A DNA stretch of 64,000 nucleotides from Malus domestica (taxonomy: Eukaryota; Streptophyta; Magnoliopsida; Rosales; Rosaceae). The notes beneath the pieces are model-generated. The model made no database searches. It saw only the letters and a program-made list of their open reading frames with translations, and was not told the DNA's origin. The stretch spans positions 8,754,501-8,818,500 of the forward strand of contig NC_091675.1 in the NCBI RefSeq assembly GCF_042453785.1. The letters are read 5' to 3'. The position numbers and the translations under genes are program-made. Shown piece after piece: positions 61,464 through 63,481 of the stretch. How positions within the stretch are numbered: position 1 is the first letter of the stretch; every line of letters begins with the position of its first letter.

Positions 61464-62744
61464 GGAAAGATGTTAGCTTGATATTCATTGTCAACTCATT
61501 CTCTAAAAACCATTTGAATTTTGAAACATAATTATGAGGTAGCGGGTGGTGTTAGAGTGACCACATCTTTTAAAACCATATTTTGTATACCACACAATGT
61601 AGGGGTAAATGATTGTATTCATTCTTTAAATTATCAAATTAATGAATCCAATCGTCAACTAAAACATCATGTGGTTTACATAAGATTTAAAACAATGATC
61701 CCTTTAGCATTTTCCTTAGCAATAAAAAAAAATAATTCAGGAGCTTCTAGTTTCAGCGACAAACCATATTATTACAGTCAAATTTTAATTGTGAGCATTA
61801 TAATGCTAATAACCCAGTTGAGATAATATTCTATGATGGCCATGTTTGGTCCTTGCAATCATTCTGGGTGAGTTTGAGACATATGTGTGATGAAATAAAA
61901 GATGACCAATAGTAAGTCCGCTGAGTTCATAACAAAATATCAATATAATGAAATAATCATTCGGTTCTTTGATTAACGGGTGGGGTTAACTTTGACAATA
62001 TCTAATGAACTTCCGAAACAAAGATGTATCTAAATCAACATATCTCTATATTTTAATTTAAAGCATATATAACTCACATAGGATTCCAAAACTTTTTAGC
62101 AAACACCTTTCATGGGTTCCTTCATTGACCTCATGGGAGAAGTGCAAAAAATGCAAGTTTTATTGGTCAAAAAGTAACCACACATTGATTAATGTCTGCT
62201 ACTACACTCCATGATTTAGCTTTTAGCAAGATTCTTTGTTTCACTTTAAGATCAGCTTTATGTTACTTCATATATATGCTTTGTTGATTTTAGTGAACTA
62301 GTCATGAAGTACCTCCTTGCATGCATATTCAATCATATCAACTACGCGGTCCATATTGCTTATTGAGGCTTTCCTGCATGCCGTTCTCAGTAAGTATGTT
62401 CCATCATAGTTTTGGGTACTTTGTCTTATTATATATGTATATATGTATAGTATACAATATATTTTTTTATCACGGATCATATGACATACATGAATTTTTA
62501 CAAAAGGAGAAAATATACGAATTAATATATAGAAGAGAGATGACCAACTATAATAAAGTACTTAACAAAATCACCCATTAAATTGTCATATAAGGTTGTT
62601 GAATATCATTACAATATATTTGATCGCTAGTAAGTGATTATACTAAGTACATAAATGTATTGTGACCAAATCCAATAAATGAAAGTATTTTTTGCACGTA
62701 TTCAACCTTGCATGTATCTTTCTTTTTTATTTCAAAATAGTCAC

Positions 62745-63476
62745 TGTAACATCCCACATCGACCAACAGAGAGGGGGTGATGTGCCTTATATGTACATGC
62801 TCCCCTCCCTATAGCACGAGGCCTTTTGGAACTCACTAGCTTCGGATTCCATCGGAACTCCGAAGTTAAGTGAGTTTGGGCGAGAGTAATCCTAGGATGG
62901 GTGACCCATTGGGAAGTTCTCGTGTGGGTTCCCAGAGACAAAATCGTGAGGGTGTGGCCGGGGCCCAAAGCGGACAATATCGTGCTACGGCGGAGTCAAG
63001 TCTGGGATGTAACATAATGGTATTAGAGCCACTTTGCCGTGTGGTGCGAGTGTGCCAACAAGGACGTCGGACCCTTAAGGGGGTGGATTGTAACATCCCA
63101 CATCGACCAACAGAGGGGGGATGATGTGCCTTATATGTACATGCTCCCCTTCCTATAGCACGAGACCTTTTGGGAACTCACTGGCTTCGGGTTCCATCGG
63201 AACTCCGAAGTTAAGCAAGTTCGAGCGAGAGCATTCCTATTTTGGGAACTCACTGGCTTCGTGGCATTCCTAGGATGGATGACCCATTGGGAAGTTTTCG
63301 TGTGAGTTCCCAGAAACAAAATCGTGAGGGCATGGCCGGTCTCAAAGTGGACAATATCATGCTACAGCGAAGCCGATTTGGCTAGTGAGTTCCCAAAAGA
63401 CCTCGTGCTATAGGAGGTGGGCATGTACATATAAGACACATCACCCCCTCTCCGTTGGTCGATGTAGGATGTTACA
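62745..63476 (+). mobile_element. Rearranged Cassandra-type TRIM retrotransposon with 5S-like LTRs
   Basis: LTR 1 (62745-63014) runs TGTAACATCCCACATCGACC to GGGATGTAACA. It contains a 5S rRNA-like block (62844-62936: TCCATCGGAACTCCGAAGTT, GGGCGAGAGTAATCCTAGGA, TGGGTGACC), the signature of Cassandra elements. A primer site TGGTATTAGAGCC (63018-63030) and a purine tract AAGGGGGTGGA (ending 63087) frame a 74-bp internal region. LTR 2 starts at 63089; its 5S block is interrupted by a second copy of TTTTGGGAACTCACTGGCTT, and it breaks near 63372. From about 63384 to 63476 the 5' end of an LTR follows in inverted orientation, ending GGATGTTACA. The whole unit is flanked by GTCAC (62740-62744 and 63477-63481). 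Confidence 0.92.
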
Positions 63477-63481
63477 GTCAC

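What the first reader, a model, noticed from the sequence alone, without database searches (positions are those of the whole stretch)
62745..63476. Cassandra TRIM whose second LTR is rearranged and capped by an inverted LTR end, inside one target duplication
A normal TRIM has two direct LTRs. Here the outer right end is the inverted left end of an LTR, yet both outer ends (TGTAACATCC and GGATGTTACA) are flanked by the same GTCAC. That suggests the composite integrated as a single product with two 5'-type ends, or that a later inversion or nested event recreated the boundary exactly. It could record aberrant reverse transcription or strand transfer before integration.
Basis: partly seen in the sequence, partly recalled or inferred. 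Interest (0 to 1): 0.72.

Follow-up and report, generated by a model that had tools for sequence, protein, structure and literature searches.

The report
Two-headed Cassandra miniature retrotransposon insertion
A tiny plant jumping element carries its own starting end, flipped, at its finish, and seems to have entered the chromosome that way; a second site in the same genome has the same layout, so this looks like a recurring copying mistake rather than a one-off or an assembly error.

Summary
Window 62745-63476 is a Cassandra TRIM (LTR1, internal region, LTR2). LTR2 lacks its last ~10 bp; an inverted copy of LTR positions 1-96 stands there instead. Both outer ends abut GTCAC. Of 61 other copies parsed, 27 keep a perfect 5-bp duplication, against 8 of 3660 mispaired flanks.

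It is not unique. A junction pattern matches two places genome-wide, the window and C11 (L032), with different flanks and joins 2 bp apart. L093, L085 and L049 are other inverted composites; L049 is an inverted pair inside one CATGG duplication.

All three caps end in the U3-type base T, seen in 1 of 146 ordinary right ends. So the cap was copied out to the LTR's very start, and integrase probably used two U3 ends. Best mechanism, inferred: an inverted template switch in cDNA synthesis before integration. Post-integration repair is the main rival; L032's duplication is unclean and L093 has none.

A maize TRIM with two inverted units in one duplication is published (PMC4717578), so this is a new variant of a known kind. 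Reads and empty sites could not be checked.

The parts
62740..62744 (+). left target-site duplication GTCAC
   Evidence: chance level
62745..63014 (+). LTR1, ordinary Cassandra LTR with 5S rRNA-like core (Rfam match 62818-62933)
63015..63088 (+). internal region: PBS-like TGGTATTAGAGC near its start, purine-rich tract before LTR2
   Evidence: same layout in ordinary copies. PBS and PPT labels are recalled from knowledge of LTR retrotransposons
63089..63380 (+). LTR2, sense part, ends about 10 bp short of a normal LTR end (by comparison with other copies, by eye)
63231..63272 (+). templated direct insertion in LTR2: GCATTCCTA, 22-nt U3 copy (63240-63261), TG, GCATTCCTA
   Evidence: family D4
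63381..63476 (-). inverted cap: reverse complement of LTR positions 1-96, ending at the U3 terminus (GGATGTTACA)
63477..63481 (+). right target-site duplication GTCAC
   Evidence: chance level

Best explanation
A Cassandra TRIM cDNA was mis-made before integration. While the strand ending in U5 of the right LTR was being finished, synthesis jumped in inverted sense to a plus-sense Cassandra DNA strand at about LTR position 96-98, beside the strong 5S hairpin. It copied that strand out to its 5' end, the U3 start. The linear product had a U3 terminus at both ends. The helper element's integrase accepted both and inserted the product once, making the GTCAC duplication. Shown: anatomy, flank match, U3-type terminal base, second locus with nearly the same junction, other inverted composites. 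Inferred: timing (before integration), strand-switch route, hairpin role, helper integrase.
For: Perfect GTCAC at both outer ends: mispaired flanks match in 8 of 3660, true pairs in 27 of 61. Fourth base from the end is T in 3 of 3 caps (window, L032, L093), but among 146 ordinary right ends it is G in 141, A in 4 and T in 1 (first motif match per segment taken; 43 further segments without the motif, the capped copies' among them, were left out). Ordinary LTR starts have A at the matching fourth base in 155 of 163 (caps included). L032 carries the same kind of U5-to-inverted-U3 junction at another locus; flank hits there are no better than E 0.11. L049: two inverted TRIMs, both outer ends U5-type, both abutting CATGG. 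L085: tail-to-tail composite switching five bases past the U5 end into inverted U3. A hairpin begins within about 2 nt of the cap's inner edge in both window LTRs: -10.1 and -14.1 kcal/mol, z -3.45 and -5.73. LTR2 has another jump-type insertion of U3 sequence ending at about the same U3 place. Published precedent: maize inverted TRIM pair in one TSD (PMC4717578, section 8 with Fig. 2 legend read).
Against: No reads, no empty site, no cDNA. L032's duplication is not clean: CATGT matches only if one end lost a dinucleotide, and its flanks also form an inverted repeat of about 8 bp, which a DNA-level inverted copy could explain. L093 shows no duplication, and L085's left end is too unclear to test. 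L032's LTR1 segment folds weakly (z -1.78). The cap is slightly closer to U3s of another class than to the element's own LTRs, so the template may have been another copy; that is allowed but adds a step. An old insertion (LTR1/LTR2 K2P 0.114) leaves time for later conversion.
Confidence: 0.6

Rival explanations
1. Post-integration repair or gene conversion. An ordinary element with GTCAC flanks suffered a break near its right end. The outer 10-bp terminal repeat (inverse of the LTR start) invaded a Cassandra U3, copied about 86 nt, and was rejoined to LTR2.
For: Explains the retained duplication without unusual integration. By eye, no U5 base before the terminal 10 bp is lost in the window or L032. 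L032's flanks form an inverted repeat next to the ends. Templated insertion also occurs inside LTR2, and L055 has an inverted copy inside its LTR2.
Against: The outermost 10-mer should then stay U5-type. It is U3-type in 3 of 3 caps, against 1 of 146 ordinary ends with that base, so copying must have run to within 3 nt of the flank each time.
Confidence: 0.25
2. Two separate insertions in opposite orientation next to each other, followed by a deletion that fused them; GTCAC matches by chance.
For: Cassandra is abundant here (145 matching pieces from the 40 scored of 4608 candidates), and opposite-oriented pieces lie side by side at several loci.
Against: Needs a 5/5 flank match by chance (0.00215 by composition; 8 of 3660 mispaired) and nearly the same deletion breakpoints twice (window and L032).
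Confidence: 0.08
3. A capped element arose once and then moved as a unit with long terminal inverted repeats, so the window and L032 are relatives.
For: Junctions within 2 bp, different flanks; both caps carry the rare CATCCTACATC (4 of 166 U3 segments, the two caps included).
Against: Ordinary reverse transcription makes both LTRs alike and would erase a cap found only on LTR2 (recalled mechanism). LTR2 bodies are not close (L032's LTR2 is 129th nearest of 175 to window LTR2), and each cap has nearer neighbours than the other cap. The junction pattern finds only 2 copies.
Confidence: 0.05
4. Assembly or sequencing artefact at the inverted junction.
For: Inverted repeats of ~100 bp can be misassembled; no reads were available.
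Against: Nearly the same architecture at an unrelated locus, sequence divergence between cap and own LTRs (K2P 0.067 and 0.116), and matching flanks on both sides.
Confidence: 0.02

Closest known systems
Cassandra TRIM (5S-carrying non-autonomous LTR retrotransposon)
   Same: LTR length and 5S-like core, short internal region, TG...CA ends, 5-bp duplication, many ordinary copies in this genome
   Different: LTR2 ends in an inverted U3, so both outer ends are U3-type and the element has terminal inverted as well as direct repeats
[quoted passage not shown] 2016, PMC4717578 Fig. 2C; section 8 with legend read)
   Same: inverted TRIM material inside a single 5-bp duplication; the authors report PCR and sequencing of their tandem-array TRIMs
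   Different: two inverted TRIMs there; here one unit plus a 96-bp inverted LTR start. L049 in this genome is the nearer match
Tandem LTR-retrotransposon insertions within one TSD (PMC11899658; passages read)
   Same: complex structure linked to a single insertion with one duplication
   Different: direct arrays sharing LTRs; no inverted end in the passages read
HIV-1 proviruses with asymmetric LTRs (PMC9278108; abstract and outline read)
   Same: the two LTRs of one integrated copy differ in structure
   Different: commonly major 3' deletions there; no inverted U3 end is mentioned in the abstract

Membership tests
Cassandra TRIM | 5S rRNA-like sequence inside the LTR | tested here: met
   Rfam RF00001 62818-62933, 51.4 bits against gathering 38; only LTR1 passes, LTR2's 5S part is interrupted
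Cassandra TRIM | two direct LTRs around a short non-coding internal region with PBS and PPT | tested here: met
   LTR1 and LTR2 starts 344 bp apart, 74-bp internal region, same layout as ordinary copies. LTR2 lacks its last ~10 bp
Cassandra TRIM | right outer end is a U5 end (3' end of the LTR) | tested here: not met
   right end is an inverted U3 end with a U3-type terminal base; hence a rearranged derivative, not a standard member
Cassandra TRIM | 5-bp target-site duplication | tested here: met
   GTCAC on both sides, baseline; empty site not seen
Inverted TRIM composite within one TSD (maize type) | opposite-oriented TRIM sequence inside one duplication | tested here: met
Inverted TRIM composite within one TSD (maize type) | two complete units in inverted order | tested here: not met
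   only 96 bp are inverted in the window; L049 has two units in inverted order
Foldback or MITE DNA transposon | terminal inverted repeats with a transposase-type duplication, multiplying as a unit | tested here: inconclusive
   terminal inverted repeats of ~96 bp and a 5-bp duplication, but the junction pattern finds only two copies

The most novel reading that the evidence does not exclude
Cassandra cDNAs recurrently switch templates in inverted sense at one preferred place, the LTR terminal repeat on one side and the base of the 5S hairpin on the other. This yields linear molecules with two U3 ends that the helper integrase inserts normally, so integration does not need one U3 and one U5 end. 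The 5S sequence would thus shape the element's own structural variants.
Probability: 0.3. Interest if true: 0.65.

Novelty: new variant of a known kind. Interest (0 to 1): 0.42.

Why it matters
If true, it is natural evidence that an LTR-retrotransposon integrase can insert a molecule with two U3 ends (window) and, in L049, with two U5 ends, and that inverted strand switching of TRIM cDNA leaves heritable structures. It also warns annotators that such copies can look like foldback elements or nested insertions.

Tried and rejected
Shared descent of the two capped copies: LTR2 bodies are not close and the caps are not nearest neighbours; one rare shared substitution (4 of 166 segments, the two caps included) speaks for it, so it was kept as a minor rival. 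Segmental duplication: flanks of window and L032 give no hit better than E 0.11. Wider search for caps: a looser pattern gave 18 hits, of which by eye only window, L032 and L093 read as sense U5 into inverted U3. The widest pattern gave 57 hits against 50 for the backward control, and letters were shown for only a few, so no count of further caps is possible. The reading that the right terminal repeat is the element's old U5 end, with inverted U3 inserted before it, was set aside because the terminal base is U3-type.

Not done: three searches were asked and never answered: the flank search for an empty site, a search with the cap as query, and a search for a capped LTR followed by a PBS. Papers not held: pear Cassandra (Yin 2014), Kalendar 2008 and the maize dRemp paper, so inverted Cassandra forms may be in print there.

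Full report
What is there. The window lies at G000:C15:8754501-8818500 of a 651-Mb, 19-contig assembly. That size and about seventeen chromosome-sized contigs suggest apple; this is inferred, as no name is given. At 62745-63476 there is a Cassandra TRIM: LTR1 62745-63014, internal region 63015-63088, LTR2 from 63089. LTR1 contains a 5S rRNA-like core. LTR2 stays in sense orientation to 63380, about 10 bp short of a normal LTR end. Then comes an inverted copy of LTR positions 1-96 (63381-63476), ending GGATGTTACA. Both outer ends abut GTCAC.

Is the duplication real? I parsed 61 other Cassandra copies with recognisable ends from the fetched loci; copies without a recognisable start or end were dropped, the window and L032 among them. 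Of the 61, 27 have a perfect 5-bp duplication and 44 match at 4 or more bases. Mispaired flanks match perfectly in 8 of 3660. Local base composition gives 0.00215. So GTCAC is far more likely a duplication than chance, though no empty site was seen.

It is not unique. A pattern for sense U5 followed within 30 bases by inverted U3 matched twice in the genome, with 0 in the control: the window and C11:24156948-24156984. The C11 element (L032, C11:24156866-24157546, minus strand) has LTR1, internal region, a truncated LTR2 and the same kind of cap. Its flanks do not align to the window's beyond chance (best E 0.11). The joins differ by 2 bp: the window cap covers LTR 1-96, L032's 1-98. A third, L093 (C4:6782110-6782515), is a solo LTR capped by an inverted LTR start reaching into the 5S part. 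Its flanks show no duplication. L032's flanks give CATGT on both sides only if one end lost a dinucleotide; they also form an inverted repeat. LTR retrotransposons show a weak preference for palindromic targets (PMC6911290, passages read), so both readings stay open.

Other inverted composites turned up among loci fetched by similarity. L049 has two TRIMs head to head; both outer ends are U5-type and both abut CATGG. L085 runs sense internal-LTR, five bases past the LTR end, and then switches into inverted LTR(1-104)-internal-LTR; its left end is too unclear to test for a duplication. L010, L055/L056 and L063 show further inverted pieces, without a clear duplication for L055. All these loci were fetched by similarity to the window or to L032's junction, or by a junction pattern, so no frequency can be taken from them.

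Which end does the cap have? Ordinary right LTR ends have G at the fourth base from the end in 141 of 146, A in 4 and T in 1. The script took the first motif match per segment; 43 more segments had none and were left out, the capped copies among them. LTR starts have A at the fourth base in 155 of 163 (caps included), so an inverted start would end in T at that place. All three caps do. The cap was therefore copied to within 3 bases of the outer edge or completely, and in the window the flank duplication follows at once. That is hard to get from a repair event that kept the old right end. It is what a copy running to the 5' end of a plus-sense DNA strand would give.

Where did the strand switch? 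In both window LTRs a hairpin of the 5S core begins within about 2 nt of the cap's inner edge (-10.1 and -14.1 kcal/mol, z -3.45 and -5.73). The L032 counterpart, taken from its LTR1, is weaker (-7.8 kcal/mol, z -1.78). The insertion inside LTR2 (63240-63261) is a copy of U3 sequence ending at about the same U3 place, between two copies of GCATTCCTA. L085 switches at LTR position ~104 and L093 at ~129. The clustering is suggestive only. The cap resembles U3s with GCCCACCT, while the element's own LTRs have GCTCCCCT, so the template may have been another Cassandra copy. The margin is small: the nearest other U3s differ from the cap by 0.052 with gaps counted, and the cap and LTR1 differ by 6 substitutions and 2 gap columns over 95 aligned bases.

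Age. LTR1 and LTR2 differ by 24 transitions and 2 transversions over 254 aligned bases (K2P 0.114, 33-bp insertion left out). Six ordinary pairs I chose by hand give 0.087-0.182. The insertion is old.

Mechanism. I favour an inverted template switch while the right LTR was being completed in cDNA synthesis. It would give a linear molecule with two U3 ends, inserted once by the helper integrase. The steps of LTR-retrotransposon reverse transcription used here are recalled knowledge. Ordinary reverse transcription makes both LTRs alike, so a cap present only on LTR2 should not survive a further round. The two copies with nearly the same junction are then best seen as two events at a favoured place, or as one copied into the other by conversion. 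Distances do not link them closely, and the short-segment tree has mostly weak support. The main rival is repair after integration using the 10-bp terminal repeat.

Known or new. An inverted TRIM pair in a single duplication is published for maize (PMC4717578, Fig. 2C legend). Tandem Cassandra arrays are published too (PMC7215508, passages). In the listings of the searches made here I saw no paper on an LTR capped by its own inverted start inside one duplication. I opened only a few of the papers listed, and the library lacks the pear Cassandra paper and others, so I do not claim it is unreported. I file it as a new variant of a known kind.

Limits. The whole-genome dna searches score only the best 40 candidates, so counts are lower bounds; the patterns allow no mismatch in their fixed bases, so diverged caps could be missed.

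Noticed in passing
L049:453-1725 (C17, 21091556-21092828): Two Cassandra TRIMs head to head, U5-type outer ends, both flanked by CATGG; between them 15 bp of inverted internal end plus about 30 bp of other sequence holding AAATTTCG..CGAAATTT.
   Followed up: partly
L085:about 920-1755 (C10): Tail-to-tail composite: sense internal-LTR, switch five bases past the LTR end into inverted LTR(1-104)-internal-LTR; left outer end unclear.
   Followed up: partly
L055:1661-1742 (C13): Inside LTR2 an inverted copy of U5 and 5S sequence lies between sense 5S parts, like a double template switch.
   Followed up: no
window 63231-63272: Templated insertion of 22 nt of U3 sequence inside LTR2, flanked by 9-bp GCATTCCTA copies 33 bp apart.
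   Followed up: partly
L032:2079-2132: The left LTR of the C11 capped element carries a duplication of its own first 54 bp.
   Followed up: no
L010:720-842 (C3): A Cassandra array begins with inverted internal and U5 sequence joined to sense U3 at position 28.
   Followed up: no
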